DNA from: Thiomargarita sp. | Lineage (GTDB): Bacteria > Pseudomonadota > Gammaproteobacteria > Beggiatoales > Beggiatoaceae | Direction: 5' to 3' | Length of the DNA: 45,357 bases | Assembly: GCA_020720115.1 (NCBI GenBank) | Contig: DYPD01000016.1 | Coordinates: 1-45,357 of the forward strand | Part shown: positions 54 to 18,582 of the stretch, piece after piece | Layout of the letters: each line of letters opens with the position of its first letter | How positions within the stretch are numbered: position 1 is the first letter of the stretch | Position numbers and translations under genes: made by a program | The notes under the pieces: model-generated | Told to the model about the DNA's origin: nothing | What the model saw: the letters and a program-made list of their open reading frames with translations, nothing else | Database searches by the model: none

Positions 54-100
54 AACGTGCTATTACCTTTTGTTGATTACCTTAAATTGTGCTGACTACT

Positions 101-3100: not shown

Positions 3101-5131
3101 GAACTGCGTACTCCATTGAATAGTATGCTAATTCTCTCGCAAATGCTGGTGGAGAATCGGCACAATAACCTCACTGAGCAGCAAATCGAATCCGCCCGCA
3201 CCATCAATCATGCAGGGTCTGATTTGCTCAATTTAATCAATGATATATTGGACTTATCCAAAGTCGAAGCCGGAAAAATCCTGATTAATCCAGAAACCTT
3301 TAGCCTAGAAACTCTGTGTAACACGCTCCAACGCAATTTCGATCCGATGGCACAAAACAAAGGGCTGGATTTCCAAATACAGCCAGAAATTGCCACCGAT
3401 ACGCAACTGCACACCGATTTGCAGCGTCTTCGGCAAATCCTCACCAACTTGCTCTCTAACGCCTTCAAATTTACCGACAGCGGCGGCTCAGTTAGGCTTC
3501 AGATTCGCGCCGCCGCATCGCGGCGCATGGAATTTGCTGTCGTGGATTCTGGCGTAGGCATTCCCGCCGACAAACAAAAAGCCATTTTTGAAGCCTTTCA
3601 ACAAGCCGATGGCAGCACCAGCCGCCGTTACGGGGGCACTGGCTTGGGCTTAACCATTTCGCGCCAATTAGCCAAATTGTTGCAGGGCGAAATCCGCCTA
3701 CACAGCGAACCAAGCAAAGGCAGCAGCTTCATTTTAAGCATTCCGCAACAGATCGCTGCCGAAAGCGAACACCAATCCCTGCCATCTGCCGCGCCTGTCG
3801 CTGTCTTACAGCCACTGGCTGCGCCCGTTGCGCCGCCCCCGCCGCCCGTTTCAGAACACAGCTTCACCCCGCCGCAAGTTGCTGCACCACGCGCTCCACA
3901 GGCAGCAGCACAACCCGCGTGTGCCGATGATCGAGAACGCTTGCAAGCGGGCGATAAGAGCCTGCTCATTGTTGAAGATGACCAAAAATTTTCCGAGATT
4001 TTGCTCGGACTGGCACGCGAACGCGGCTTCAAGGTGCTCTGTGCGCACGACGGCGAAACCGGTTTGCAACTGGCACGAGAATACCTGCCTGGCGCTATTA
4101 TTCTCGACATCGGCTTGCCGCAAGTGGACGGCTGGACGGTAATGAGCGAACTGAAAGACGATCCCAGCACACGACATATTCCGGTGCATTTTGTCTCTGG
4201 CACGGATGACCATCTGGATGCGCGTCGCATGGGCGCTATCGGCTATTTGCTCAAGCCTGTGAGCATGACAGAATTATCTAAAGCCTTCAAAACCATAGAA
4301 AATTTCACACAAAAAACACTTAAGCATACGCTCTTGGTTGCAGACGACCCGCAACATCTCCAACAAATGCTAGAACTCTTGCGTAGCGAAGATGCCCGTT
4401 TCACCACCGCCGCCAACCACGAAGAAGCCTGGCAATGCCTCAACCGCGAAGACGCGGATTACGACTGCATCGTCGTAGATGTCAACGCGGGCGGGGATAA
4501 CGGACTGTTTTTGCTGGAAGCCCTGCGCAAACAGGAAACCATGCACAAAATTCCCGTGATTATTTATGCAGAACGCGAATTAACTGCCGAAGAAGAACGC
4601 CGCCTAGAAAGCTGCACGCAACAGCTCACAGTGAAATCCGTCCATTCACCAGAGCGTTTACTGGATGAAGCTACGCTGTTTTTGCACCAGGTTGAAGCCC
4701 GTCTGCCTGAAGACAAGCGCCAAATGCTCAACCGCGTGCATGACAAAGACGCCCTGTTTAAGGGCAAAACCATTCTGCTGGCAGATGACGACATGCGCAA
4801 TGTGTTTGCACTCGGCGGGGCGCTCGAAAGCAAAGGCATGAGCGTGGTGTTAGCCAAAAATGGCGAAGAAGCAGTGCAGCAACTCCAGCAGCAACCAACG
4901 ATTGATTTAGTGTTGATGGATGTGATGATGCCGAAAATGGATGGCTTTACCGCCATGCGCCTGATCCGCGCCGAGCCACGCTGGCACAAACTGCCCATCA
5001 TCGCGCTGACGGCTAAAGCCATGAAGAATGATCGCACCAAGTGCATTGAAGCAGGCGCCAGCGATTATTTATCCAAACCCTTGGATATAGACAAGTTATT
5101 ATCGCTGATGCGGGTGTGGTTATATCGTTAG
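101..5131 (+). CDS. very large membrane hybrid sensor histidine kinase with duplicated sensor, GAF and three receiver domains
   Basis: Inner-membrane sensor kinase for a multistep phosphorelay. From the ATG at 101 (a GTG at 89 is also possible) there are about 1676 residues. Visible order: TM1 ~5-27; a periplasmic region with two similar Cache-like sensor units (matching 'DLLLV...EG' segments near 158 and 367, each followed by a 'G.SGES.LVG' motif); TM2 ~567-589; three HAMP-like segments ~590-730; GAF ~765-910; coiled coil ~915-990; HisKA with H-box SHELRTPLN (His1000); HATPase with NLLSNAFKFT and GGTGLGL; Pro/Ala-rich linker ~1235-1285; REC1 (Asp1336); REC2 (Asp1460, weak); REC3 (Asp1607, in LMDVMMPKMDG). 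REC2 lacks the usual lysine-proline context and may not be phosphorylated. Architecture resembles orphan hybrid kinases of large-genome gammaproteobacteria. The signal sensed is unknown. An antitoxin-like gene starts 21 bases downstream. Confidence 0.93.
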   Translation: MKIRTRLLATTLVLSIAPLLLVGGLALHKSHKALSEQAFSQLDSVRQIKKHQIEEFFAELHKDMDMLQHTVSLLRQHAEQQLRPIQANKIAHLEDFFQERQNDVEVLSHNEWIAQALEQFHGALTMEKKIGGLSWLSIEERLGNALQKIQQTYGYFDLLLVAKEGEVVYSTRKGADLGQNLLAEMDSDTGLKRAFEKGLKQVSIEDFAPYAAAAHQPVLFISAPVYRFEELSGVLVLALTLDSHAPNSINGITQNRTGLGESGESFLVGQFAKQATYLTARIQTLETAAVGDPVDAVEALLALDGESGVMTKMTSNKLLKLSAYAPLQIAGLNWALISQINLEEAITPKLHQEQTDFFSQYLAVYGYQDLLLVHPEGQIFYSVAKKEDYGTNLLEDEYQHTHLAELVRQVLKSGQQEISDFALYPPSNNEPAIFSAQPLLNANAAIEFVLVLQSNGYELSHVIKQRDGMGQSGESYLVGSDSLMRSDSFLDNEHRSLQASLQNPTEGKVDTPSVRAALAGNTGEHISDNYLGNSVLSAYTPVDIGKQRWALIAEIDADKAFAAIHNIQLLLLGLIAVIILIAWWLAARFTGQLVTPLLQVRSQLRALAQGQVVEISIKYQSQNEIADIIKAAEQLKNALHSVIEQANSIAAGDYNSEVTLLSEKDELGRALVHMINTLRGVVVQANLIAQGDYSKEFKILSEDDQLGLALANMTHTLREMRDVNNEALRKLEQENAQKNRADWFKTGMSQLSERMSGQQDTPLLGKNIIGFLANYLHAQIGTFYLYQMRNEVRGPETQNGSGLLKLIGSYAYTKRKHMSDAFALGEGLVGQAALERQMIVITAVPPDYAQIQSSVGDAPPQNLAIVPFDYEEHLSGVFELGRFAPFTEDELSFLQQVTANIGIAVNTAESRVKMQELLEQSRAQSEELQNQAEELQSQQEELRQANEELEGRSQDLEAQKQAISEKNAALEHSQAAIEAKAQELELANKYKSEFLANMSHELRTPLNSMLILSQMLVENRHNNLTEQQIESARTINHAGSDLLNLINDILDLSKVEAGKILINPETFSLETLCNTLQRNFDPMAQNKGLDFQIQPEIATDTQLHTDLQRLRQILTNLLSNAFKFTDSGGSVRLQIRAAASRRMEFAVVDSGVGIPADKQKAIFEAFQQADGSTSRRYGGTGLGLTISRQLAKLLQGEIRLHSEPSKGSSFILSIPQQIAAESEHQSLPSAAPVAVLQPLAAPVAPPPPPVSEHSFTPPQVAAPRAPQAAAQPACADDRERLQAGDKSLLIVEDDQKFSEILLGLARERGFKVLCAHDGETGLQLAREYLPGAIILDIGLPQVDGWTVMSELKDDPSTRHIPVHFVSGTDDHLDARRMGAIGYLLKPVSMTELSKAFKTIENFTQKTLKHTLLVADDPQHLQQMLELLRSEDARFTTAANHEEAWQCLNREDADYDCIVVDVNAGGDNGLFLLEALRKQETMHKIPVIIYAERELTAEEERRLESCTQQLTVKSVHSPERLLDEATLFLHQVEARLPEDKRQMLNRVHDKDALFKGKTILLADDDMRNVFALGGALESKGMSVVLAKNGEEAVQQLQQQPTIDLVLMDVMMPKMDGFTAMRLIRAEPRWHKLPIIALTAKAMKNDRTKCIEAGASDYLSKPLDIDKLLSLMRVWLYR

Positions 5132-5152
5132 AAACCTGGAGAACACATCCTC

Positions 5153-5470
5153 ATGAGTCAGATTGCCTTGCTTTCGGAAGCGAGCCATAACTTTCCGAAG
5201 CTCTATCATCAAGCCATTGATGACAGAGAAATTATTTTCATACAGGCGGGGGATAACCAAGAGCAGGTTGCCTTGATTGCGGCAGATGAACTGAACAGCT
5301 TGTTGGAAACCGCGCATTTGTTGAAATCCCCCAATAATGCACAACGCTTGTTGACTGCTTTACAACGGGCAAAAACCCAAAATCTGCCAGCACTCAGTCT
5401 TGAAGACCTGAAGAGCGAACTGATGCCAGAAGAGTGTGACGATCTGATCGAAAAGGCACGGAAAAATTGA
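5153..5470 (+). CDS. Phd/YefM-family antitoxin-like protein, orphan
   Basis: The 105-residue protein has the features of Phd/YefM antitoxins. An N-terminal fold begins SEASHNFPKLYHQA and includes an 'AADELNSLLET' segment. It ends with the family's C-terminal signature 'LLKSPNNAQRLLTAL...LSLEDLKSEL'. Such proteins bind their own promoter and neutralise a RelE/YoeB-type RNase toxin encoded just downstream. No toxin frame follows here: the next 109 bases hold no credible ORF before the small lipoprotein gene. A GGAG lies about 12 bases upstream of the ATG. The 21-base gap from the kinase suggests co-transcription. It may be a toxin-less relic, an antitoxin acting in trans, or a repurposed DNA-binding regulator. 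Confidence 0.75.
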   Translation: MSQIALLSEASHNFPKLYHQAIDDREIIFIQAGDNQEQVALIAADELNSLLETAHLLKSPNNAQRLLTALQRAKTQNLPALSLEDLKSELMPEECDDLIEKARKN

Positions 5471-5579
5471 AATACATTGGCATAGAGGCTGCTAAAGCCG
5501 CTCCTATGGGGATGATAAAGTGATGTCATAGCCCGCCAGCATTTCGCCCATTTTTCGCCGTGAAATTAAGGAGAAGAAG

Positions 5580-5735
5580 ATGAAAACAACCCGTTTATTA
5601 GTCGTTTTAGTGACTCTGGTATTGGTATTAGAAGGTTGCTGCTTCCCACCTTATCGGCATGGGCGTGGCGGCGGCGGACGCCATCATCATTTCGCTGGTG
5701 ATGCCTCTATCGGTTACATAAAGCACATGCGCTGA
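5580..5735 (+). CDS. small putative lipoprotein, 51 aa
   Basis: A short frame with a strong ribosome binding site (AAGGAG about 8 bases before the ATG) encodes a lysine-led hydrophobic N-terminus (MKTTRLLVVLVTLVLVLEG) ending in a lipobox-like LEGC, with Cys20 as the possible lipidation site. The mature part is about 31 residues: a Gly/Arg/His-rich stretch (RGGGGRHHH) and a polar tail. A lipobox with Glu at -2 is unusual but tolerated. No family is recognised. The His-rich patch could bind metal, which is inference only. The ribosome binding site and signal-like N-terminus argue that it is real despite its size. Confidence 0.62.
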   Translation: MKTTRLLVVLVTLVLVLEGCCFPPYRHGRGGGGRHHHFAGDASIGYIKHMR

Positions 5736-5761
5736 ATGTTGACCTAAACTCAATCATTCAA

Positions 5762-5817
5762 CAACGTAAACAGCCACGACACTTTGAATAGATTAAGTGT
5801 CGTGGCTGTTTACGTTG
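5762..5817. terminator. long perfect inverted repeat (23-bp arms, 10-base loop)
   Basis: Arms at 5762-5784 and 5795-5817 are exact reverse complements around the loop TGAATAGATT; they centre on the core CAGCCACGACAC. It sits between the small lipoprotein gene and the next kinase gene. No clean U tract follows on either strand, so it may be a terminator, a processing or stability hairpin, or a repeat element. Confidence 0.6.
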
Positions 5818-5920
5818 GCGCGTTAAATAGAGTCTACTGCCCCTGCAAAAACTCGCTTACTCAAGCAAATTTGTGTAATCTAGGCTTTTCTAGTTTTCCT
5901 TGCTATATGCCTCCATATTC

Positions 5921-8185
5921 ATGCCAATCAAAGCCCATTTTTCTCAATGGCTCAATAACTTACCCGTACGCTTTAAACTCTTGGCGTTGACTGGGTTAGT
6001 GTCAGGGCTAACCCTGTGCATTTCGGTTACTGCCATCACTTTCAGTGATTGGCGCTTGCATCGAGAACTGATGCTGAAAAATGCCCAGGCACAGATTGAA
6101 ATTCTTGCCGGCAGTAGCGAAGCAGCGCTGTTGTTTGGCGATGCCAAAGGCGCGCAAGACAACCTAGCCCCTCTATCCAAAGTACAGGGCGTTGTTACGG
6201 TAGTTTTGTTTGATGCAAGTCGCCAGCCCTTTGCCGAATATTACCGCGATCCCAATCACAAAGAACCTTTGCCGCCTTTAACCGGCACTTCTTACGAAGA
6301 ATATCGCGGCGAGCAGCTTGTGCTCTACAAAGCGATTGTGTTGCGCGGACAGAAAGCAGGTTTTTTGCTGGTTATTAATGACTTAAAGCCGTTTCATGCA
6401 AGCTTGTTTCTGGTGTGGACATTTTCGGTGGGCATCGCGCTCTTTTCGCTGGTATTAGGCTGGCTATTATTTCAAAGAATGCAGCGCATTATCACTGATC
6501 CTGTGTATTCCTTAAGCCAAGCGATGGGACATGTCAGTCGAGAGCAGGATTACAGCGTGCGCATCAGGGTGTACAACACCGATGAATTGGGCGATCTGGC
6601 ACGCGGCTTTAACGATATGCTGCAACAGATTGAAAAACGAGATAAAAAAGCCGAGCGCTATAGCCGCGATCTGGAACAAGCCGTGCAGCAACGCACCCAG
6701 CAATTGGCAGTGACTGTGGAAAGCTTGCTGGAGGCAAAAGACAAGGCGGAGCGGGCAAACCAGGCAAAAAGCCGTTTTTTAGCCAACGTTAGCCACGAGT
6801 TGCGCACGCCCTTAAATGCGATTTTGGGTTTTGCCGAAATTTTGCAGCAAAAAAGCACTGGCAACATGGATCGTAAACAGCTTGGAATTATTTTGAATAG
6901 CGGTAAAACGCTGCTCAATTTAATTAATGAAATTCTTGACTTAGCAAAAATTGAAGCAGGTAAGCTGCGGCTTGAATATGGTTTGGTAGATGTGCGGCAA
7001 ATGTTGCACGAACTGGGTTATTTTTTTATCCCCAAAGTAGAAAGTAAAAACCTGGAGTTGCGCGTAGATATTTTGCCTGAATTGCCGTGCGCACTCTTGC
7101 TGGATAATGCCCGTGTGCAGCAGATTTTGATTAATTTGCTGGGTAATGCGGTGAAATTTACTGCCCAAGGTCATGTGCGCTTAGCGACAGAAATGCGCTG
7201 GTTAAATGCCGCACACAGCTCGCTAGAGCTACATTTTATTGTTGAAGACACTGGCATTGGTATTCCAGAACATGAGCATGAGCGGATTTTTCGCGCTTTT
7301 GAGCAACAAGAGAAACAATCCCAAAATCAATTCGGCGGCACCGGGTTGGGGCTGGCAATCACGAAAAACCTAGTAGAAATGATGCACGGCGAGATTCAGG
7401 TGCGTAGCCAAGTCGGACAGGGCAGTTGTTTTAGGGTGATTTTTCATGCGGTCGAAGTACCGCTTAGGCTACCAGAAGCGAAACCTGAAGAAACGCCCCA
7501 TCAGTCAGTGATGTTTGCCCCCGCACGGGTTCTGATTGCTGACGATATTGAGCTAAACCGCGAACTGCTGAAAGCCTTCTTAAGCGATTATCCCTTTAGT
7601 ATTCAGGAAGCCGCCAACGGTCAAGAAACCTTAGATGCAGTACAGATAGCGCCGCCAGATTTGATTTTGCTCGACATCAAAATGCCAGTGCTCAATGGCG
7701 AAGAAGTCGCGCAACGGCTGAAAAATAATCCGCACACAGCCGCTATTCCCATTATTGCGGTGACAGCTCATGCGATGCCAGAAGATGTGGATCGCTATAA
7801 GCATTTGTGCAACGACTACCTCCCCAAACCTGTGTCTAAACAAGCTTTGCAGCAAAAGCTGATGCAGTTTTTACCTTACCTGACTGTCGCGCCACCCGCT
7901 GCTACCGAAGCAATCACATCAGCAGAAGCAGCGCCCGCACCTACTTTGCTTCCCGATAGTTTGCACGCAATCTTGCACAGCGAATGTTTGCCTGTTTGGA
8001 AAAGCTTGGATCAAACCAGCCCTATTAACGCGATCAGCGATTTTGCCCAAGCGGTGACGCATTTGGCGCGAACCCATGATTATCCGCCGCTGGTGCAGTG
8101 GGGACGGGAACTCTGCGAACAGGCAGAAAGCTTTGATATTATGCAAATGCACAAAACCTTGGCTGATTTTCAGCAATTTTTATAA
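5921..8185 (+). CDS. CHASE8-type hybrid sensor histidine kinase
   Basis: Second membrane hybrid kinase, 754 residues from the ATG at 5921; an in-frame TTG at 5900 would add seven residues. Order: TM1 ~20-41; periplasmic domain ~45-155 resembling CHASE8 ('LAGSSEAALLFGD' near 63-75); TM2 ~162-185; HAMP ~186-240; coiled coil; HisKA with SHELRTPLN (His292); HATPase with LLGNAVKFTAQG, DTGIGIP and GGTGLGLAI; one receiver domain with phospho-acceptor Asp585 in LLDIKMPVLNG; then a C-terminal helical tail ~650-754 with no recognised phosphotransfer histidine. It autophosphorylates His292 and passes phosphate to its own receiver; an external Hpt protein would be needed for output. No cognate regulator is nearby. 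Its stop overlaps the convergent cmoB stop by six bases. Confidence 0.92.
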   Translation: MPIKAHFSQWLNNLPVRFKLLALTGLVSGLTLCISVTAITFSDWRLHRELMLKNAQAQIEILAGSSEAALLFGDAKGAQDNLAPLSKVQGVVTVVLFDASRQPFAEYYRDPNHKEPLPPLTGTSYEEYRGEQLVLYKAIVLRGQKAGFLLVINDLKPFHASLFLVWTFSVGIALFSLVLGWLLFQRMQRIITDPVYSLSQAMGHVSREQDYSVRIRVYNTDELGDLARGFNDMLQQIEKRDKKAERYSRDLEQAVQQRTQQLAVTVESLLEAKDKAERANQAKSRFLANVSHELRTPLNAILGFAEILQQKSTGNMDRKQLGIILNSGKTLLNLINEILDLAKIEAGKLRLEYGLVDVRQMLHELGYFFIPKVESKNLELRVDILPELPCALLLDNARVQQILINLLGNAVKFTAQGHVRLATEMRWLNAAHSSLELHFIVEDTGIGIPEHEHERIFRAFEQQEKQSQNQFGGTGLGLAITKNLVEMMHGEIQVRSQVGQGSCFRVIFHAVEVPLRLPEAKPEETPHQSVMFAPARVLIADDIELNRELLKAFLSDYPFSIQEAANGQETLDAVQIAPPDLILLDIKMPVLNGEEVAQRLKNNPHTAAIPIIAVTAHAMPEDVDRYKHLCNDYLPKPVSKQALQQKLMQFLPYLTVAPPAATEAITSAEAAPAPTLLPDSLHAILHSECLPVWKSLDQTSPINAISDFAQAVTHLARTHDYPPLVQWGRELCEQAESFDIMQMHKTLADFQQFL

Positions 8186-9225: not shown

Positions 9226-9747
9226 CTATTCGGCTTGGGTCATGAGCAAATACACTTGCGCGAGGAGTTGCGTGTCTAGCAGCGCACCGTGTTTATCGCG
9301 CTGCTGGGTATCAATGCGGTAGCGGCGGCATAAGCCGTCTAGGCTGTTGTCTACGCCGGGATGTTTGGCGCGGGCGAGTGCGAGGGTGTCAAATACGGTG
9401 CAGTAGCGTTCGATAGTGCCCCAAGGATTGGGTAAGCGGGCTAATTCATGGTTTATAAAACCCACATCGAAAGCGGCATTGTGGATAATTAATTCACTGC
9501 CTTTAATGAATTGCATGAAGTTTTCTACTATGTCAGCAAACAAGGGTTTGTCTTGCAGAAATTCATTTTGAATGCCGTGTATGGCAAGCGCACCAGGATC
9601 AATGGGGCATTCTGGATTGAGATAGGTGTGAAAGTGTTGATCGGTGATTTCTCGATCTATGATTTCAGTACACCCTATTTCAATAATCCGGTGTCCCTCA
9701 GAAGGTGCAAGCCCGGTGGTTTCTGTGTCTAGTACAATATGTCTCAT
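9226..9747 (-). CDS. dnaQ: DnaQ, DNA polymerase III epsilon (proofreading exonuclease), short form
   Basis: 3'-5' exonuclease of the DEDDh family, the proofreader of the replicative polymerase. All five catalytic residues are visible: Asp7 and Glu9 (LDTETTG), Asp94 (HNAAFDVGF), His153 and Asp158 (KHGALLDTQ). At 173 residues it ends right after the exonuclease fold (LLAQVYLLMTQAE). The E. coli protein (243 aa) continues with a beta-clamp-binding peptide, a flexible linker and the segment that binds the alpha subunit. Those are absent, and only 50 bases separate the stop from cmoB, too little to hold the missing tail in any frame. It either binds alpha in another way or a second epsilon exists elsewhere. 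It lies between rnhA and cmoB on the same strand. Confidence 0.93.
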   Translation of the reverse strand: MRHIVLDTETTGLAPSEGHRIIEIGCTEIIDREITDQHFHTYLNPECPIDPGALAIHGIQNEFLQDKPLFADIVENFMQFIKGSELIIHNAAFDVGFINHELARLPNPWGTIERYCTVFDTLALARAKHPGVDNSLDGLCRRYRIDTQQRDKHGALLDTQLLAQVYLLMTQAE

Positions 9748-9798
9748 CTTGCTGGTCTCGTTTTAGAACCTCATTAAAGCTTTTAGCGGCTTGGGTTC

Positions 9799-10269
9799 TT
9801 AGGCTGTTTCGCGTAATCCTTCCAAACCGGCACGCGCTAGTTGATCGGCGATTTCGTTTTCTGTGTGCCCAGCATGTCCTTTAACCCAGTGCCAGTGCAT
9901 CTCATGTTGTTGTGCAGCCGCTTGGAGGCGCTGCCAGAGGTCTTGATTTTTCACCGGTTTTTTATCTGCCGTGCGCCAGCCACGCTGTTGCCATTGATGA
10001 ATCCATTGGGTAATACCTTGGCGCAAATACTGGGAATCTGTGGTTAAGTCCACACGGCAGCGGCGTTTGAGGCTTTCGAGTGCCATTATAGCCGCCATTA
10101 ATTCCATGCGGTTATTGGTGGTATTGGCTTCGCCGCCTTGTAAGCGTTTTTCTTGGTCTTTGTAGCGCAGTAAAGCGCCCCAGCCGCCGGGTCCGGGATT
10201 GCCGCTACAAGCGCCGTCGGTAAAGGCTTCCACCCGCTGTAGGCTGGATGAGGTGTGGTTTTCAATCAT
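9799..10269 (-). CDS. rnhA: RNase HI
   Basis: RNase HI removes RNA from RNA-DNA hybrids such as Okazaki primers and R-loops. The 156-residue protein matches the E. coli size (155) and shows the four acidic catalytic residues: Asp18 ([18 protein letters not shown]), Glu56 (NNRMELMA), Asp78 (LTTDSQYL) and Asp142 (NEIADQLA), plus the basic handle region ([15 protein letters not shown]). The start at 10269 was chosen because its ATG overlaps the upstream methyltransferase stop as ATGA, implying translational coupling, and because it gives the normal family length. The open frame runs further upstream only as a shadow of the methyltransferase. Confidence 0.97.
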
Positions 10270-11033
10270 GATTTTGTCTGTCTTGCTGTGGGACTGGCGG
10301 TCTGGCTGGCGGCGCCAATCAGGTTTTTGTCTTTGGCAGCACCTAATAGCCAGTGCGGACGCACGCGGGGCATGTAGAGGCGGCGTTTTTTTGCCAGCAA
10401 CACATACACGCCGCCCAGCGGCAACCAGCGCCGTTCGATAGCGCCTAGCCAGCCCAAGGTGCGCATCAGGTGCGGATTTTGGAACGGGGGGCTGAAGCAA
10501 CAAGCCTGTTGGCTAAGGATTTCAAAGCCGAGCAGGGATAACCAATCTTTGACTCGCATTAAGGCGAGAAATTGGGCGTTCCAGGGCGGTTGGTGCCGGT
10601 GTTTGAATAATCGCCACAGTCCCCACCAGCCCAACGGATTAAAGCCGAGTAATAACAGATGCCCTTCCGCCACCAGAATGCGCTCGGTTTCGCGCAAAAT
10701 GCCGTGTGAATTGCCGGAAAATTCTAGCACATGCGGCAACAGCACCAGGTCTACGCTGTCGGCAGCAAACGGCAGTGCATCCGCTTCTGAATGCAGCCCA
10801 CAAATGTCAGGCAACGCGGGTAATTCGGGCACTGATACCAAACATTGATGCCCAAGGCGCATCCCTTGTAATAATTGCCCTTGTCCTACGCCGCCGATTT
10901 GCAGTGCATGAAAGCCAAATAATTGCGGATAGAGGCTTTGTAACAGGTGCTGTTCTTCGCACAACACCTGTTGCCCAAGGACGCTATGGGCAAACCAATG
11001 CACAGGATGCGACGGCGGAGGGGATGAGATCAT
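10266..11033 (-). CDS. YafS-like SAM-dependent methyltransferase
   Basis: Class I methyltransferase, 255 residues. A degenerate SAM-binding motif I ([12 protein letters not shown]), a segment [20 protein letters not shown] (motif II/III region) and the conserved '[16 protein letters not shown]' block are typical of the family whose E. coli member YafS lies next to rnhA and dnaQ. The substrate is not known. The C-terminus is basic and low in complexity. It is the first gene of the leftward unit leading into rnhA, dnaQ and cmoB, and its TGA overlaps the rnhA ATG. The family call rests on sequence pattern and on synteny. Confidence 0.85.
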
Positions 11034-11157: not shown

Positions 11158-11646
11158 ATGCAAGAGATTTCATCCGATGTTCCCCAGGTAGAATGCGAAT
11201 TACTGGATGTCAACGGGCTGCCAGTGACAGTGCGCATTGATAAAGCCCAGGCGTTGCAATTGTTGCAGCACTTTCGCCGCACCTTTGCGTGGCAAATTCA
11301 CTGGCAAGCGCCCGCCACCGCACAACCTGCGGTTGCGCTGGATTTGGAAAACTTCACGCAGCAGGTGTTGAGCGCCGCCACTACCGTGCTGCCCGCCGGA
11401 CGTTTTGGGCAGCAGCAGGTGTTTATTAACCATGCTTGGCGAGCATGGCAAAATTCTGGCGGACATTTGGGCTTGGCGGAGTTCAAACATTGGCTTTCCA
11501 TTGCTCAAGGTGCGGGGCTTTTACAACTCAGTTGTGCTGCCTTGATGGAAACGCTCAATGCCGTAGATTTGATGCAAAGTGAAATCACCAGCGAGACTGA
11601 TCCGGTCTACCATTTCATTGTTCTAGCGGATGCACAAGCTGTCTAA
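11158..11646 (+). CDS. unrecognised 162-aa protein upstream of the helicase-nuclease gene
   Basis: No family is recognised. The start is uncertain: a GTG at 11044 opens the same frame, but the first 38 residues from it look non-coding and lie close to the divergent methyltransferase promoter region, so the ATG at 11158 (MQEISSDVPQ) is preferred. The product is soluble, without signal peptide or membrane segment. The N-terminal half is beta-like (ECELLDVNGLPVTVRIDKAQ) and the C-terminal half is helical with aromatic residues (INHAWRAWQNSGG, HWLSIAQGAGLLQLS, LMETLNAVDLMQ). It ends 41 bases before the large helicase gene on the same strand, so the two are probably co-transcribed and may act together; this is inference. 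Confidence 0.65.
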   Translation: MQEISSDVPQVECELLDVNGLPVTVRIDKAQALQLLQHFRRTFAWQIHWQAPATAQPAVALDLENFTQQVLSAATTVLPAGRFGQQQVFINHAWRAWQNSGGHLGLAEFKHWLSIAQGAGLLQLSCAALMETLNAVDLMQSEITSETDPVYHFIVLADAQAV

Positions 11647-11687
11647 GTCAGTGTACAGTTTAGAGAGCTATTTTTAACCCAGTTCTG

Positions 11688-14600
11688 ATGACCATGCTTC
11701 TTTCGCAACTCCAACAACGCTTAAGCACGCAAGTCGGGCACAGCAATCTGCTGCGCCTGCGCTTAAGTGCAACAGCGCGGCTGCTCGATTGCCGTCAGCT
11801 TGAGCAACTCAGCAAAGGGTTGTCACGGCAACTCATCTACACGCTGATGAATAGCAAAGCAACGGTCAATTGCGATTGCCCCGACACCGCGCATCCGCTT
11901 TACGAACTCCTGGATAAGCGCATCCGCCGCCAAGCAGAGTTGGCGCAACGCGAGACGGGCGTTCACGCGCTCTGGCTGGGGTATCCGCTGCTGTATTTGT
12001 TGCCGCCCGACGGTGATCCTGAGCAAGCGGTGCTGGCGCCGTTGCTGCTACTGCCAGCCAACATCAGCCCTAATGTGCGCAAACAAGGACAATTACGCAT
12101 CAAACGCGACAGCGAAGCGGGTGCGGTGCGGGCTAACCCGCTACTGTGGGCGTGGGTACGGCGCCATTATCAGATTCAACTACCGCACCCTGAGCCATCT
12201 GGTGCTGGGCAATCCGGCTTAGATTGGGCGGGGCTACATAGCTTTTTGGAACAATGCGCCAACTGCTTTAGCCAAGCACCGCGCATTGACATCGAATCCA
12301 CGCTGGTCAGCGTACCGGCGCTGAAAAGCCCGCGCAAATCCCCTAGCCTGATCAACGCCGCTGTGCTCGGCTATTTTCATTGGCCTAACGCTTCGCTGCT
12401 GTCTGATTTGGAAGCGCTGCAACAACAGGATTTAAGCGACAGTCTGCTCAACGGCTTGCTGGCGCGTCAGCATCCAGCGCCGATTCCGCCGCTGCCCGCG
12501 CCACCAGAAGCGGATCGTTTTTGGGTTTCGGACGCGGATTTTTCGCAAATGCAGGCGGTTTGGCAAGCGCGCCAAGCGCCTGGCTTAGTGATTCACGGAC
12601 CGCCTGGAACGGGCAAATCCCAAACTATTGTCAACATCATCGCCGACAGCCTTGCACACCAGCAGTCAGTGCTGATGGTGTGCCAAAAGCAAGCGGCGTT
12701 GCAGGTGGTGCATGGGCGTTTGCGCGACGCGGGTTTAGCGCCCCTGTGCCTGCATGTGCGTGACGCCGACGCCGACCGCCAAAGCCTGTTCCGTGATCTG
12801 CGTGCGCAAGTAGATGCCTTGCCCACGCAAACAGAAAATCAAGAAATACAGTTGCTTAGCCACAAACGTAACCAATTAGCGCAACAGATCACACGCTTAG
12901 AAATTGCCCTGGATAAGCACGCGCAAGCGGTGCATGTGCCACACAGCAAGCTGCTCATCAGCTACCGGGAAATGCTCGCGCAAAGCGCGGCGCTCAGTCA
13001 GCGTTTTCCGCACTTGCGCACTTTGCCCAGTGTGCAAAAGCAACTAGACGGCATCTCTGCGCCCGAACTGGACGCCCTGGCGGAAAAAATCCTCACCCTT
13101 GGGCATTTGTATGCGCAAGCCGATCCGCACCGCAATCCCTGGTATTGGCGTCAGCCGGATTGCCGCTTAAACGATCATTTGCTGTCGTTGGTCAAGGGCG
13201 CTTTAGCCGAATTGCGCGAACGCAACGCCCAACATTTAGCGCATCTGGATGCCACCCCGCCGCTGGTGCTGCCCGAAAAACTCGCGGCTTTTCCCGATTT
13301 TATGCAGCGCATCATGCAAGCCACCGAGCAATTCCAGGCTGCGCCGGTGCAAGCCACAGAAAATCCTGAAGTTTCGCCCAATGCTGAAGTGATCAAAGCC
13401 TGGTGGCAAGCCATACGCCACAGCAATCAGCGCGTGCTGCAATGCCATTTGGATGCTTGCGCAACGGCGCTGAAACTCGCAGAAGAAGTGGAAAATCATT
13501 GGTTTACCCAGCCCGCGCCAGTACCCACTCAGGAAAGCCACTGGCAGCAACACTACCGCGCCCATCACCAAGCAGATTTGGATGCTCTGGAACGCCACGC
13601 CCGCGCCCTGTTGCGCTATGACGGTGCGTGGTGGCGCTTGTTGTTGCCAGCGTACCACCAAGCACGGCGCGCCTTGCAAGCCCTGACGCCAGCGGGTTCG
13701 TCGCCGCGCCAAACCGCGGAAAATCTATTGCAGTTCATTCAACGCGATAGGCTGCTTACGCGCTTGAACTATAGTTGCCAAACTCTAATCCCTGGTGTGC
13801 TTTTTCCCAGCGATAAAAGCACCACGCCGGAACAGCAAACGCGCTTTTTGCGCCAAGCACAAAGCGCCTTGCACAGCATTCTCTGGTTGCGCGAGCAAGA
13901 ACAAGCGCAGCCTTGGCTCACGCCGCTGTTTGACGGCATGATGCAAAACCCCGCCAGTGGTTGGACAGCGTTGCAACAGCAATTTAGCCAAGGGCTGCAA
14001 CGCTTGCCATTGGCAGAGCAACTGCTGCAAAGCGTCGGCAAATTGCAAACCTGGTTACAACCTTCAGCCTTGGAAACGCCTAAACGCCTGGTGCGCGAAG
14101 GCAAGGATTTAGCCCCTTGGTTGCAAACCTTAGAACAAGGTTTAAGCAGCTTTCCCGCGCTCTTGAGCCTGGAGGCTGAGCGCCAAAGCCACAGCGGTTT
14201 ATTGCGCGGCTTGCTGCAAGCTTTGGAAAATTATGAACAAGAACGCCGCAATCCGCACTTGCTGGCAGGTGCGGGCGAAAAGCTACCGCAGCCACCAGAT
14301 AGTTTGACGCAAGAAACCTATGGGCAATGGTGGGACGCTTTGTTGCGTTTTAGCGCCTTACAAAGTGCGCTCAACCGTTGCTTGCAAGAGTCGCCCAGTT
14401 TGCAAGCCCTAACGCCGCAAGCCCATGCGGATACGGTGGAAAAACTTGAACAGGCGTTGCACGCCAAACGCGCTCTGGAAGCTGAATACATTTTGCACAC
14501 CTGGTTGCAAGCACAAGCGCCGTTGCGCTCGCGCCCTTGGAAGCGGATTTTTCAACTGCGAGCCAGCCGCAATAGCGCCGCCAACCGGATGCGCGAAGCG

Positions 14601-16070
14601 GTGGCGGCGGGTTTGGAGGAAGGTTTGCTGCATTTGCGTCCTTGTTGGTTGACCAATCCAGAAACCGCCGCGCAGATTTTCCCGTTGCTGCAACACTTGT
14701 TTGACCTGGTAATTTTTGACGAAGCCTCGCAATGTCCGTTAGAGCAAGCCTTGCCCATTATCCATCGCGGACAACGGCTGATCGTTTGCGGCGACGAGAA
14801 ACAATTACCGCCCACAGGCTTTTTTATGGCGCACTTGGAAGAAACGGAAGACACAGCAACGCTTACTGAGGACGACAACAGCGGCGAGTTTGCCGCCGCT
14901 CCTGCGCTCAGCAGCGAGATCGATCCCTATTTGCTCCACGCCGAAGACTTGCTTGCCGCAACCAGCGGGCATTTGCGCGAAACCTATTTGCGCGTGCATT
15001 ATCGCAGCACCGATCCGCTGTTGATTGCCTTCAGCAACCAGGCTTTCTATCATGGCTTGTTGGAAGTGCCGCCAGCAAATCGCGCCCTGCCTTTTGACCC
15101 GCAACAAGCTAACAGCCCCTTGCGTTTTCAGGCAGTGAATGGCGTCTACGACAAGCGCCGTAATCTGGCAGAAGCCGAGCAAGTCGTTGCCCGCTTGCAA
15201 GAACATTGGCTCAATGACAGCACACCGCCCAGTATCGGCGTGATTACCTTTAACCAGGTGCAGCGTGATTTGATTGAAGACCACATCAGCGCTCGCTGTC
15301 AAACTGACCCAGCCTTTGCCAGCGCCTACCAGCGCGAAGTGGCACGCGGAGCGGATAGCCAAGGACAAGGTTTTTTTGTGAAAAATCTGGAAAATGTGCA
15401 GGGTGACGAGCGCGACCTGATCATTTTCAGCACCACGTTCGGCACAGACCCGCAAGGGCGTTTTTATCGGCGGTTTGGTCCCCTGGGCGCCAGCGGCGGC
15501 GAACGGCGCTTAAATGTCGGCATCACCCGCGCTAAACAGGGCATTGAATTGCTCTGTAGCCTGCCGTTGCAAGACATGACCGACACGGACGCGCCGCAAG
15601 ACAGCCTCACGCCTGCGGCTTATTTGCAGCTTTATTTGCAATATGCGCAAGCCATTAGCAACGGTGACACTGTGCTGGCGCATCAAATTTTGCAGCGCCT
15701 TGATAGCGGACCCAGCAATAAACCCCAGCAGTGTGGTGCGCCAGCGGCGCTTTTGCAGGACATTCAAGCGCACCTTGCCGACTGGGGCTACAGCTCGCAA
15801 TTATGTTTAGGCAGCCCCAGCTTGGGGCTGGATATTGCTGTGCAACAGCCGGAAAAACACGATTTTTTATTAGGCATTGAGTGCGACGGCGGAGTGTATT
15901 TCCGCGAACGCGACAACCAGTTACGCGAAATCTGGCGCGTGCGTCTGCTACAAAGGCACGGCTGGCAATTGCACCGCATTTGGAGCGAACGCTGGTGGAA
16001 TGCCAAAAACACCGAATTGGAAAAATTAAAGCAACGCTTAGAAGCCGCGCAACGGACAACAGGTGCTTAA
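11688..16070 (+). CDS. SF1 helicase fused to a PD-(D/E)XK-like nuclease domain (COG1112-like)
   Basis: A 1460-residue cytoplasmic protein. The N-terminal ~1-250 resembles DUF4011 ('LAPLLLLPANI' near 120). SF1 helicase motifs follow: Walker A GPPGTGKS (Lys310); a long helical insertion ~380-980; motif II VIFDEASQCPLEQA (Asp1011, Glu1012); motif III CGDEKQLPPTG; motif IV region LRVHYRSTDPLL; motif V QGDERDLIIFSTTFG; motif VI RRLNVGITRAKQGIEL. The C-terminal ~1350-1450 carries a Vsr/DUF559-like nuclease pattern: LDIAV (Asp1382), LGIECDG (Glu1398, Asp1400), then 'RLLQRHGWQLHRIWSERWW', as in MTES_1575-type domains. ATP-driven translocation coupled to cutting is the expected activity. Such proteins are frequent in defence islands, but the target is unknown. 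All core motifs look intact. Confidence 0.9.
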   Translation: MTMLLSQLQQRLSTQVGHSNLLRLRLSATARLLDCRQLEQLSKGLSRQLIYTLMNSKATVNCDCPDTAHPLYELLDKRIRRQAELAQRETGVHALWLGYPLLYLLPPDGDPEQAVLAPLLLLPANISPNVRKQGQLRIKRDSEAGAVRANPLLWAWVRRHYQIQLPHPEPSGAGQSGLDWAGLHSFLEQCANCFSQAPRIDIESTLVSVPALKSPRKSPSLINAAVLGYFHWPNASLLSDLEALQQQDLSDSLLNGLLARQHPAPIPPLPAPPEADRFWVSDADFSQMQAVWQARQAPGLVIHGPPGTGKSQTIVNIIADSLAHQQSVLMVCQKQAALQVVHGRLRDAGLAPLCLHVRDADADRQSLFRDLRAQVDALPTQTENQEIQLLSHKRNQLAQQITRLEIALDKHAQAVHVPHSKLLISYREMLAQSAALSQRFPHLRTLPSVQKQLDGISAPELDALAEKILTLGHLYAQADPHRNPWYWRQPDCRLNDHLLSLVKGALAELRERNAQHLAHLDATPPLVLPEKLAAFPDFMQRIMQATEQFQAAPVQATENPEVSPNAEVIKAWWQAIRHSNQRVLQCHLDACATALKLAEEVENHWFTQPAPVPTQESHWQQHYRAHHQADLDALERHARALLRYDGAWWRLLLPAYHQARRALQALTPAGSSPRQTAENLLQFIQRDRLLTRLNYSCQTLIPGVLFPSDKSTTPEQQTRFLRQAQSALHSILWLREQEQAQPWLTPLFDGMMQNPASGWTALQQQFSQGLQRLPLAEQLLQSVGKLQTWLQPSALETPKRLVREGKDLAPWLQTLEQGLSSFPALLSLEAERQSHSGLLRGLLQALENYEQERRNPHLLAGAGEKLPQPPDSLTQETYGQWWDALLRFSALQSALNRCLQESPSLQALTPQAHADTVEKLEQALHAKRALEAEYILHTWLQAQAPLRSRPWKRIFQLRASRNSAANRMREAVAAGLEEGLLHLRPCWLTNPETAAQIFPLLQHLFDLVIFDEASQCPLEQALPIIHRGQRLIVCGDEKQLPPTGFFMAHLEETEDTATLTEDDNSGEFAAAPALSSEIDPYLLHAEDLLAATSGHLRETYLRVHYRSTDPLLIAFSNQAFYHGLLEVPPANRALPFDPQQANSPLRFQAVNGVYDKRRNLAEAEQVVARLQEHWLNDSTPPSIGVITFNQVQRDLIEDHISARCQTDPAFASAYQREVARGADSQGQGFFVKNLENVQGDERDLIIFSTTFGTDPQGRFYRRFGPLGASGGERRLNVGITRAKQGIELLCSLPLQDMTDTDAPQDSLTPAAYLQLYLQYAQAISNGDTVLAHQILQRLDSGPSNKPQQCGAPAALLQDIQAHLADWGYSSQLCLGSPSLGLDIAVQQPEKHDFLLGIECDGGVYFRERDNQLREIWRVRLLQRHGWQLHRIWSERWWNAKNTELEKLKQRLEAAQRTTGA

Positions 16071-16112: not shown

Positions 16113-16583
16113 ATGAATAAATCCAGGTGGGCGTATGTTTGTTTAGGGCTATCTATCAATGCGGTAGCGGCTGAGGTGGGTGTGAGCCTTGAAGGTATCA
16201 GTATTTTGGGCGCACAACGCTATGCCTTTGTCAGTTATAAAAATCAATCCTTTCGTGTCGCACCCAATGACCAGGTTGACGATTGGTTGGTGGTGAAAAT
16301 TGAGCCAAGAGCGATTTTTGTGCGCAATGTGAAAGACGAAAAAGGCGTTGAACAAAAAATTGACATGGATAACGTAACCGCCGAACCTTTAGTGGTCGCT
16401 CCACAGCCTTTAACCCCCGCAGCACCTGTGTTGCCAATGCCAACCTCAGCCGGACTGCCAGAGGCAAAACCCGCCCCAGCTTTTCAGCCCAGGGTGATTA
16501 AAGATGAAGATATTCCGCCTGGACATAGGCGCGTGCGCACACCTTTTGGCGATGTATTGGTCAAAGATGAGAACGCTAAATGA
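16113..16583 (+). CDS. exported periplasmic protein with a GspC/PilP-like segment
   Basis: The 156-residue protein has a signal peptide (MNKSRWAYVCLGLSINAVAA, likely cleaved after AVAA) and a strong ribosome binding site (AAAGGAGTTATCTG before the ATG). The following ~20-85 region (GISILGAQRYAFVSYKNQ, FRVAPNDQVDDWLVVKIEP, AIFVRN) recalls the beta-rich homology regions of type II secretion GspC and type IV pilus PilP proteins. A Pro/Ala-rich linker ~90-125 leads to a short C-terminal block (IPPGHRRVRTPFGDVLVKDE). It lies 42 bases after the helicase gene but is unlikely to be functionally linked to it. No secretion or pilus genes are nearby, so the similarity is tentative. Confidence 0.75.
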   Translation: MNKSRWAYVCLGLSINAVAAEVGVSLEGISILGAQRYAFVSYKNQSFRVAPNDQVDDWLVVKIEPRAIFVRNVKDEKGVEQKIDMDNVTAEPLVVAPQPLTPAAPVLPMPTSAGLPEAKPAPAFQPRVIKDEDIPPGHRRVRTPFGDVLVKDENAK

Positions 16584-16666
16584 CCAACGGTGGCAAAAGA
16601 GGGTTTCAGCGTTTGCATAAAATGATGTATTTTGCTTTAGAATGTTTCGAGTCATCGCCCAACGCC

Positions 16667-16690
16667 CTTGAGTTTGGTTCACCACTCAAG
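16667..16690 (+). terminator. weak stem-loop between two exported-protein genes
   Basis: CTTGAGT (16667-16673) and ACTCAAG (16684-16690) form a 7-bp stem with a 10-base loop, followed by TTTCTC. It could be a weak terminator or attenuator after the gene ending at 16583. The stem is short and AT-containing, so the call is low. Confidence 0.3.
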
Positions 16691-16749
16691 TTTCTCATCC
16701 ACGAAAACGCCATTATCTTCAACAACCTGAAAACGAGAGGATGTTTCCT

Positions 16750-17841
16750 ATGAGTAAAAAAACCATTATCGCCAGCCAAATGCTGGCATTAGCCGCCGCC
16801 GGTAAATTGGCAGTACAGTCCACCGCCGTATCCGCTGAAGTGATGGATAGCGGTACTAAATTAGGCAATGCTGCCCAAGCTGAAAAAGACCCAAACCAAG
16901 TACCTCGTATGCGCATGGATGAGTTCTGTACGCCTTTAGATGTGTGCTCACCGCCTACCGAAGATTTTGTGAAGGATTTTGACAGCACTGATTTTTCCGG
17001 TAGCAAATTCGGCGCACGCCGTGCTGATAGTGGCGGCAAAACCCCCGTTGCTGATCCGGTACAAAAACCTCAGTATTTTGCCTCTAACGGGATCATTTTT
17101 GCTGGTGACATCAATGACTTTGGTGATGGCGGTCCGCGTCCCAAAATTGATTTCATTATCAGCAACGTACCTAACAAACCGATGGATATGTTTTTGTTGT
17201 ATTCAGACCGTCCTTTTGGTAAAAAAGCCCCGGGCAAAGATGGTAAACCTACGAGCGACGCGCCTGAAGATGGCACGACCGCACCTATGTTTGCCAATCC
17301 ACAAGGCAGTGGCGCATTAGGCATTCCTTTGCTAGACGCCACTGGCAATTTAGAGCCTAATCTGAAATTCATTACCGGTATTCGTGCTGAACCGATCAAA
17401 CCCGTACCTGGCTTTGACGCTGATGGCAATGGTCAGTTTGACTTGAGCGCACCGCTGGGTAGTTTGCCTACGCAATTGCGCACCGTAGTTTTGACGGTGA
17501 ATTTAGACAAACTGAGCGACCTGGTGACACAGGGAAAAGTACCGCAAAACGTGTTCTTCCAAGTGGCCGCTTTCCCAGTGGGTCCTGATGGCGCACCTGC
17601 TATTGACTTCACCAAAGCCCTGTACTCTGACGTGGATCAGTTCATCATCGAAATCCCAGGTGACAACGGCGATATGGCTTCTGATCCAGGCACTAAAGGC
17701 GGCGCAGCCTCTAGTTCTTCTAGCGGTAAATCGGGTTCAAGCAGCACAGGTTCTACCAGCGCGGGCGGCAAGGGCGGTTCAACAACTACGCCTTCAACTC
17801 CTAGCACCGGTACTGGTACTTCTACTTCCACTGGTAAATAA
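16750..17841 (+). CDS. exported protein with Ser/Gly/Thr-rich C-terminal tail, function unknown
   Basis: 363 residues from the ATG at 16750. GAGAGGA at 16734-16740 sits about nine bases upstream, which favours this start over the ATG at 16741. The N-terminus has two lysines, a hydrophobic Ala-rich core and a probable cleavage site after AVSA (residues ~30-33). The mature protein has two close cysteines (FCTPLDVCSPP), an Asp/Gly-rich segment (FAGDINDFGDGGPRPK) and a calcium-loop-like DADGNGQFD. The last ~45 residues are low-complexity Ser, Gly and Thr with scattered Lys. No family is recognised. The tail resembles a flexible surface linker. The GNAT gene starts six bases after the stop, suggesting one transcript. 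Confidence 0.8.
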   Translation: MSKKTIIASQMLALAAAGKLAVQSTAVSAEVMDSGTKLGNAAQAEKDPNQVPRMRMDEFCTPLDVCSPPTEDFVKDFDSTDFSGSKFGARRADSGGKTPVADPVQKPQYFASNGIIFAGDINDFGDGGPRPKIDFIISNVPNKPMDMFLLYSDRPFGKKAPGKDGKPTSDAPEDGTTAPMFANPQGSGALGIPLLDATGNLEPNLKFITGIRAEPIKPVPGFDADGNGQFDLSAPLGSLPTQLRTVVLTVNLDKLSDLVTQGKVPQNVFFQVAAFPVGPDGAPAIDFTKALYSDVDQFIIEIPGDNGDMASDPGTKGGAASSSSSGKSGSSSTGSTSAGGKGGSTTTPSTPSTGTGTSTSTGK

Positions 17842-17847
17842 GTCATT

Positions 17848-18582
17848 ATGTTAGAAACTCACCTGCTCGGATTCCAAGCCATTCGCGGTCAGCGGGTGAG
17901 TTTGCTACGCAGAGCGCCAGAACACGCGGCGTTTCTGCGTCTTTGTTGGGATGATCAAGCCTTTATGGATTTATACCGGCTGGCACAAAACCGCCGCGAA
18001 AGTATTGAACAAATTGCCGAGCGATTGGCACAAGAATACAAACGCTTGCCAAAAGATTTACGCAAATTTGAATGGGTGATTGAACGCCACGCCACCCAAG
18101 GACAAGCAGCGCGTTTGATTGGTTTGGCAGCGGTGGCTGATTATCAACCAGAACACAGACGCGCCGAGTTTTTAATCGGGATTTTACAGCCGCAAGAGCA
18201 AAAAGCCGGCATTGGTTTAGAAGCCAGTTTATTGGTCTTGGATTTTGCTTTTAATATTTTGCAATTGAATAAATTGATTAGTTTTGTTTACGGCTACAAC
18301 CAAAGTTCGCAAAATAACACGCTCCATCTGGGCTTTACTCAGGAAGCTTTTTTACGCGAACATGTGCATTATGCTCCGCATGGTTATGTGGATATGTACC
18401 AAAACGGTCTGTTAGCCCGCGATTTTCGCCGCAACGACCGCTTAAGCCGCTGGTCGCAACGCCTGCTCCAACGCGACATTAGCCTAGCGCCCCCCGCACC
18501 TAAACAACTCTCAGATGCCTATGTGCAACAGGCGGAAGCCGCCTTTAAAGCGGCGCTACAAAAAGCCCAAGCCAGCGATTGA
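17848..18582 (+). CDS. GNAT-family N-acetyltransferase (RimJ/RimL-like)
   Basis: A 244-residue protein with a RimJ/RimL-type fold. It opens with a beta strand ending in RVSLLRRAPEHAAFL, has a helix rich in Glu/Arg, a strand segment RLIGLAAVADYQPEHRRAEF, and 'QKAGIGLEASLLVLDFAFN' in place of the acetyl-CoA loop, then KLISFVYGYNQSSQNNTLHLGF, the usual N-x-x-S-x-x-x-x-x-x-LGF end. The acetyl-CoA loop is not a clear R/Q-x-x-G-x-G/A, so the catalytic state is uncertain. The last ~60 residues are an extra helical tail. The stop overlaps the next ATG (TGATG), so translation is coupled. The substrate is unknown. Confidence 0.85.
   Translation: MLETHLLGFQAIRGQRVSLLRRAPEHAAFLRLCWDDQAFMDLYRLAQNRRESIEQIAERLAQEYKRLPKDLRKFEWVIERHATQGQAARLIGLAAVADYQPEHRRAEFLIGILQPQEQKAGIGLEASLLVLDFAFNILQLNKLISFVYGYNQSSQNNTLHLGFTQEAFLREHVHYAPHGYVDMYQNGLLARDFRRNDRLSRWSQRLLQRDISLAPPAPKQLSDAYVQQAEAAFKAALQKAQASD

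What the first reader, a model, noticed from the sequence alone, without database searches (positions are those of the whole stretch)
11158..16070. Helicase-nuclease fusion with an unrecognised 162-aa partner: candidate two-gene DNA-processing or defence system
The 1460-aa protein joins a DUF4011-like N-terminus, intact SF1 helicase motifs (Lys310; Asp1011-Glu1012) and a C-terminal nuclease pattern (Asp1382, Glu1398, Asp1400). An unrecognised 162-aa gene ends 41 bases before it on the same strand. Helicase-nuclease fusions of the COG1112 type are common in antiphage islands, and a dedicated small partner would be new to me. The pair sits between core genes with no mobile element, as single-locus defence insertions often do. 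That it is a defence system is inference.
Basis: partly seen in the sequence, partly recalled or inferred. Interest (0 to 1): 0.7.

Follow-up and report, generated by a model that had tools for sequence, protein, structure and literature searches.

The report
Solo helicase-nuclease beside unrelated gene
The large gene is a divergent member of a known family of bacterial DNA helicase-nucleases, some of which are named as anti-phage proteins, and the small gene in front of it looks like a neighbour by chance rather than a partner, so the locus is mostly ordinary.

Summary
The sequence was read correctly: both ORFs, the 41-base gap and the six named residues check out. The two-gene interpretation is not supported. 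Seven other loci carry the small protein (3) or only its C-terminal domain (4); none holds the helicase, and none of 8 other helicase loci holds the small gene. In the two closest genomes the small gene lies between a methyltransferase and an Hpt gene, with the helicase on another contig. In the window the helicase lies where two blocks, separate in those relatives, meet. The helicase is a stand-alone DUF4011/SF1/Vsr-like (MTES_1575) protein in a divergent clade near PDC-S37, ProA and Hhe, below NCBI's cut-offs for the last two. Full-length copies are in 3 of 36 same-family genomes; the clade also occurs in Planctomycetota, once fused to a protein kinase near a TrwC relaxase. That suits an accessory enzyme acting on invading DNA better than housekeeping, but no function was tested. 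The small protein's C-terminal domain also occurs before a HerA-like ATPase in two Planctomycetota genomes, the more unusual lead.

The parts
11688..16070 (+). 1460-aa stand-alone helicase-nuclease: divergent DUF4011-like N-terminus, SF1 (Upf1-like) helicase core split by a ~575-aa all-helical insert, C-terminal Vsr-like MTES_1575 nuclease
12597..12623 (+). Walker A, residues 304-312 (GPPGTGKSQ, with Lys310), invariant in the 7 clade members aligned
12831..14558 (+). all-helical insert between helicase motifs, protein residues ~382-957 (model residues ~105-680; pLDDT mostly 65-90 with short stretches under 50)
14718..14723 (+). motif II Asp1011-Glu1012 (DEASQ)
15756..16040 (+). MTES_1575 / Vsr-like nuclease, residues 1357-1451; Asp1382, Glu1398, Asp1400 (Glu1398 is Leu in Venteria and Asp in L044)
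11158..11646 (+). 162-aa gene, judged not part of the helicase system: in relatives it lies between a methyltransferase gene and an Hpt gene; its C-terminal domain recurs at the end of 336-351-aa proteins elsewhere
9226..11033 (-). left block: dnaQ-like (9226-9747), rnhA-like (within 9799-10503), methyltransferase (10266-11033); same genes next to the small gene in G016; in G001 only the methyltransferase was found beside it
   Evidence: dnaQ and rnhA are names from reading the sequence
16113..18582 (+). right block (156-aa, 366-aa, GNAT genes); all three together in G001 beside an rRNA adenine dimethylase gene, two of them together in G016

Best explanation
The 1460-aa protein is a single-gene helicase-nuclease. 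The 162-aa gene before it is there because a rearrangement, or insertion of the helicase gene, behind that gene brought the two together in this lineage. Inferred mechanism: like Dna2, Hna or Hachiman, the Upf1-like motor loads on exposed single-stranded DNA (ends, forks, recombination intermediates of invading DNA) and translocates with ATP. The long helical insert acts as clamp or sensor arm, and the tethered Vsr-like nuclease cuts the strand. The net effect is destruction of phage or plasmid DNA, perhaps with host damage. Shown here: domain make-up, conserved motor residues, fold resemblance, patchy and cross-phylum distribution, no partner gene found in the neighbourhoods compared. Inferred: substrate, cutting, role of the insert, defence role.
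For: Domains and residues. Family: PDC-S37 E 4.7e-170, ProA 587 and Hhe 397 bits. Motor relatives by sequence: IGHMBP2/SMUBP-2 E 6.3e-11, UPF1 5.1e-9. Model comparison: IGHMBP2 Z 13.0, UPF1 12.9, Dna2 nuclease-helicase 12.0 for the motor, all at rmsd of about 10 A; I-Bth0305I catalytic domain Z 11.4 (rmsd 3.6, 97 residues) and ngo0050 Z 11.0 (rmsd 2.5, 91 residues) for the nuclease. Clade of 8 set apart from 9 classical relatives with 100/100 support, the three Thiotrichales members next to four Planctomycetota. Patchy: full-length in 3 of 36 same-family genomes, clade-level scores in 2 of 274 class genomes. One relative is fused to a Ser/Thr kinase, with a TrwC relaxase gene under 1 kb away and ParB and ArdC genes within about 7 kb. 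Wider superfamily on 328 plasmid records, 202 typed conjugative (231 are Klebsiella; only 1 record covers 80% of the query). No partner: all-against-all blastp of 7 neighbourhoods and the first 30 kb of the window shares only the helicase and one weak ParA/MinD-type match; 0 of 8 other helicase loci hold the small gene, 0 of 7 other small-gene loci hold the helicase. Junction of two blocks.
Against: No phage or biochemical data. A DUF4011 gene, described with a conserved small hypothetical gene beside it, is core in P. aeruginosa and flanks a defence hotspot (PMC10250203, passages read), so relatives need not be accessory. Including the classical kind, 17 of 36 same-family genomes match the helicase at E <= 0.001 (one only at 8.9e-4), so only this clade, not the superfamily, is rare. 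The third catalytic residue varies: Glu1398 is Leu in Venteria, so that copy may not cut. DUF4011 is weak: below cut-off in Venteria and not matched at E 0.001 in L043. The model is moderate (pLDDT 66.5, pTM 0.37), and motor Z values near 12-13 are in the range the tool warns about for helical models. All 3 same-family helicase carriers also carry the small gene, though unlinked in two; common descent explains it. A misassembly at the junction cannot be excluded (no reads).
Confidence: 0.62

Rival explanations
1. Two-gene defence or DNA-processing system: the 162-aa protein is a dedicated partner (sensor or regulator) of the helicase-nuclease, held together in this lineage only.
For: Same strand, 41-base gap, no + strand promoter-like or terminator-like site in the gap (a simple consensus scan). 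The small protein's C-terminal domain occurs in two Planctomycetota genomes next to a HerA-like ATPase and, once, a DUF559 nuclease, so a DNA-processing role for the domain is conceivable. All 3 same-family helicase carriers also hold the small gene; the Gemmataceae carrier holds the domain on another contig.
Against: Unlinked in both closest carriers and in the other loci compared; small gene present without any helicase match in G010; carriers G041 and 4 of 5 Planctomycetota genomes lack the small family altogether; small gene next to Hpt genes in G001 and G016, and related 336-337-aa proteins next to a response regulator in G019 and G015.
Confidence: 0.06
2. The helicase is a host DNA repair enzyme (Dna2- or RecD2-like fork or end processing), inherited vertically in this clade and relocated by rearrangement, not an antiviral system.
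For: Between window and G001 the helicase is 70% identical, within the 52-78% range of five flanking genes; tree order window plus BB31, then Venteria, as expected for descent; no other defence gene was recognised among the window genes scanned with PADLOC (8 flanking genes; only weak partial matches).
Against: No full-length match in 33 of 36 same-family genomes; clade-level scores in only 2 of 274 class genomes; nearest outside relatives are in another phylum, one near relaxase and ArdC genes; the superfamily contains named antiphage proteins.
Confidence: 0.27
3. The helicase-small adjacency is an assembly artefact (misjoin) of a draft genome.
For: The helicase sits at a junction of two blocks that are apart in relatives; the genome is 185 contigs with 4.36% contamination.
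Against: Both flanks and the helicase match the same sister genome at 52-78% identity, so nothing obviously foreign is joined.
Confidence: 0.05

Closest known systems
PADLOC candidate PDC-S37 / NCBIfam NF058533 antiphage ProA
   Same: One long protein: DUF4011-like N-terminus, SF1 helicase, MTES_1575 nuclease; best library matches.
   Different: 587 bits against a ProA cut-off of 1500; the best stretch covers profile positions 462-1710 of 1903, leaving about 460 N-terminal and 190 C-terminal positions unmatched; DUF4011 only in part.
Hhe (NCBIfam NF042953, PADLOC Hhe)
   Same: DUF4011, helicase and Vsr-like nuclease in one protein named antiphage.
   Different: 397 bits against a cut-off of 2000. 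Classical relatives in the same bacterial family (e.g. L073: 1366 bits to Hhe, itself below cut-off) form a separate clade.
Dna2 nuclease-helicase and Upf1-like SF1 helicases
   Same: Motor fold (Z about 12-13, large rmsd; UPF1 and SMUBP-2 by sequence) joined to a nuclease.
   Different: Dna2's nuclease is at the other end and of another family (recalled); here Vsr-like and C-terminal, with a ~575-aa helical insert in the motor.
Hna and Hachiman (HamAB)
   Same: Nuclease-helicase defence that acts on single-stranded DNA or DNA ends and degrades DNA (Hna: abstract of PMC13381803; Hachiman: passages of PMC12278908).
   Different: Works-like comparison only; homology over the whole protein was not tested.

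Membership tests
NCBIfam ProA (NF058533) | whole-protein score above curated cut-off 1500 | tested here: not met
   587 bits
NCBIfam Hhe (NF042953) | whole-protein score above curated cut-off 2000 | tested here: not met
   397 bits
DUF4011 / SF1 helicase / MTES_1575 superfamily | DUF4011 above gathering score | tested here: met
   28.3 against 22.2 bits, only profile positions 82-147 of 158; relatives vary: 20.0 in Venteria, no match at E 0.001 in L043
DUF4011 / SF1 helicase / MTES_1575 superfamily | key residues of SF1 motor motifs I, II, III, V, VI intact | tested here: met
   key residues invariant in 7 aligned members; motif names recalled
DUF4011 / SF1 helicase / MTES_1575 superfamily | MTES_1575 nuclease above gathering score with acidic catalytic residues | tested here: met
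   73.2 against 38.2 bits; D1382, E1398, D1400 present
Two-gene system with 162-aa partner | partner gene next to the helicase in relatives | tested here: not met
   0 of 8 other helicase loci, 0 of 7 other small-gene loci; contigs L043 and L046 are short (6.8 and 9.6 kb)
Antiphage defence system | protects cells against phage | not testable with these tools
   needs an experiment

The most novel reading that the evidence does not exclude
The C-terminal domain of the 162-aa protein is a general adaptor of DNA-processing ATPases (it stands before a STAND-like plus HerA-like double ATPase in two Planctomycetota genomes), and in this one lineage the stand-alone copy has been captured as a regulator of a helicase-nuclease, making a newly formed two-gene system.
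Probability: 0.05. Interest if true: 0.55.

Novelty: new member of a known kind. Interest (0 to 1): 0.22.

Why it matters
It removes a false partner gene from a candidate defence system and points to a divergent, rarely seen clade of DUF4011-type helicase-nucleases shared by Thiotrichales and Planctomycetota. The three members tested against the ProA and Hhe models (window, L045, L077) all fall below their cut-offs. If the clade is antiviral, its compact form shows what the minimal machine needs.

Tried and rejected
Small protein as partner: rejected. Small protein by fold: the AlphaFold model is weak (pLDDT 61.2, 54 residues under 50) and Foldseek gave 183 matches, none at E <= 0.001; several low-ranked hits are winged-helix proteins, which I do not count as evidence. 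Solved structures with the small family: best E 0.38. Small protein in plasmids and its family in viral contigs: no match; its 351-aa relative in plasmids: no match. Foldseek of the helicase model: 4 of 514 matches at E <= 0.001; three are Rad50 or MukB chains with TM-scores of 0.06-0.08, taken as chance matches of long helices, and one is senataxin. Papers: the listings for DUF4011, MTES_1575, PDC-S37, Hhe and ProA showed me no paper on the mechanism of ProA, PDC-S37 or Hhe; PDC-S37 is in 0 papers of the library. Papers read in part: PMC10250203, PMC3710099, PMC12278908 and PMC12458937 (passages), PMC13381803 (outline and abstract). Direct repeats or att-like ends around the helicase: none found.

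Rows dropped and limits: the tree left out L046 (fragment) and trimmed the first 900 residues of L044; it holds classical relatives from 9 genomes only, so those of G002, G015, G018, G026, G028, G034 and G036 were not placed. L077, L074 and L075 are long branches, so L077's place in the clade is uncertain. The folding alignment left out L044, L046 and L077. One search covered 36 of the 42 family genomes seen (G401-G406 were never searched with the helicase). Searches drew samples from a larger class. The helicase side used 8 proteins, without L077. Kinship of G407-G411 and G427 was not told by the tool; G427 came from a phylum search centred on the Gemmataceae genome.

Full report
Observation. 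The two ORFs are as described and every named residue is present. Pfam finds DUF4011 (second half only), AAA_11, AAA_12 and MTES_1575 in the large protein and nothing significant in the small one. PADLOC gives PDC-S37 (E 4.7e-170) and Hhe (5e-78). NCBIfam gives ProA (587 bits, cut-off 1500) and Hhe (397 bits, cut-off 2000).

Is the small gene a partner? Among 57 relatives the small protein is found in 4 genomes (window genome G000, G001 55%, G016 48%, G010 32%). With a profile of those four it is in 6 of 42 family genomes, two of them weak partial matches (G015, G019), and in 1 of 369 sampled class genomes, the window's own. Full-length helicase relatives are in G000, G001 and G016 of the 36 same-family genomes; G010 has no match. 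In G001 the small gene is on contig C112 between the methyltransferase and an Hpt gene, and the helicase is on C184 next to a tuf-like gene. In G016 the small gene is on C87 with methyltransferase, rnhA-like, dnaQ-like and Hpt genes, and the helicase is on C40 after a rarA-like gene and a DUF7931 gene (tuf, rarA, rnhA and dnaQ named from reading the sequence). A cross-check by tblastn found the small family in 0 of 8 other helicase loci (E <= 0.01) and the helicase in 0 of 7 other small-gene loci (E <= 1e-5) (loci of 6.8-21.7 kb). Of six further helicase carriers searched whole with the small family, one, the Gemmataceae genome G409, has a match, to the C-terminal domain only and on another contig. 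In G000 the best match to the G001 Hpt gene (55%) is on another contig, C143.

Why are they neighbours here? The genes right of the helicase form a second block: in G001 16113, 16741 and 17848 lie together on C125 beside an rRNA adenine dimethylase gene, and in G016 the last two lie together on C26. So the helicase stands between two blocks that are apart in these relatives. The simplest account is a rearrangement or insertion in this lineage. G+C is 53-58% in the windows over the helicase, 51-56% to its left and 47-51% to its right. No repeats mark an insertion.

What is the helicase? A scan of genome contigs found 7 relatives: BB31 (70%), Venteria (45%) and five Planctomycetota contigs at 34-43% best-segment identity. 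Their neighbourhoods and the first 30 kb of the window share only the helicase and one weak ParA/MinD-type match. The tree puts the window with BB31, then Venteria, then four Planctomycetota, then, on a long branch, L077 from another gammaproteobacterial family; nine classical Hhe/ProA-like proteins form the other side. In 274 sampled class genomes 16 match at E <= 1e-60; only the window and G041 (source of L077) score like the clade, the other 14 far lower. In the same bacterial family 17 of 36 genomes match at E <= 0.001 if the classical kind is counted. One relative, L044 (2597 aa), carries an N-terminal protein kinase and lies near TrwC relaxase, ParB and ArdC genes. On a Rhizobium conjugative plasmid a split DUF4011/AAA pair lies six annotated genes before an N-6 DNA methylase.

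How it may work. The model of residues 278-1460 is moderate (pLDDT 66.5, pTM 0.37). It shows a helicase core interrupted by about 575 residues of helices and a C-terminal alpha-beta nuclease. By sequence the motor's solved relatives are SMUBP-2 and UPF1; structure comparison ranks Aquarius-like spliceosomal chains, IGHMBP2, UPF1 and Dna2 for the motor (rmsd about 10 A) and the homing endonuclease I-Bth0305I for the nuclease (rmsd 3.6 A). That I-Bth0305I is Vsr-like is recalled; the Vsr assignment of MTES_1575 is in PMC3710099 (passages). With Hna (3'-5' single-strand exonuclease stimulated by a phage SSB; abstract of PMC13381803) and Hachiman (DNA-end sensing; passages of PMC12278908) as models, the likely action is ATP-driven loading on exposed single strands and cutting of invading DNA. 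This is inference. Glu1398 is Leu in Venteria and Asp in L044, so not every copy need cut.

The small protein. Its C-terminal ~95 residues recur at the end of ~350-aa proteins in two Planctomycetota genomes (2 of 294 searched), each directly followed by a ~1060-aa protein (42% identical between the two) that in L105 has an N-terminal AAA/STAND-like and a C-terminal HerA-like ATPase; L105 also has a DUF559 nuclease gene beside it. Related 336-337-aa proteins in G019 and G015 lie beside a response regulator. PADLOC has only weak matches for the proteins of this locus that I scanned. This is a separate lead.

Verdict. Real genes, a real helicase-nuclease of a known superfamily, no evidence for the partner. 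Interest is low to moderate.

Noticed in passing
L105 3886-9390 (-) and L104 2209-6453 (-): Planctomycetota gene pair: ~350-aa protein with the small protein's C-terminal domain, followed by a ~1060-aa double ATPase (STAND-like plus HerA-like by Pfam in L105; L104's copy 42% identical); in L105 also a DUF559 nuclease gene. Possible undescribed translocase-nuclease system.
   Followed up: partly
L044 5871-13664 (+): 2597-aa fusion of a Ser/Thr protein kinase to a helicase-nuclease of this clade, near TrwC relaxase, ParB and ArdC genes.
   Followed up: partly
L112 3529-9424 (+): On a Rhizobium leguminosarum conjugative plasmid the DUF4011 and AAA parts are annotated as two overlapping genes.
   Followed up: no
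L069 2156-2524 (+): Low-complexity ORF made of repeated short units (RQAQGT / FDKLRERS), likely a repeat array in the window's genome.
   Followed up: no
window 89-8185 (+): Two long signalling genes in tandem; 5900-8185 has HisKA, HATPase_c, response regulator and CHASE8 domains; 89-5131 was not scanned with Pfam but is similar to sensor-kinase ORFs elsewhere in the genome.
   Followed up: no
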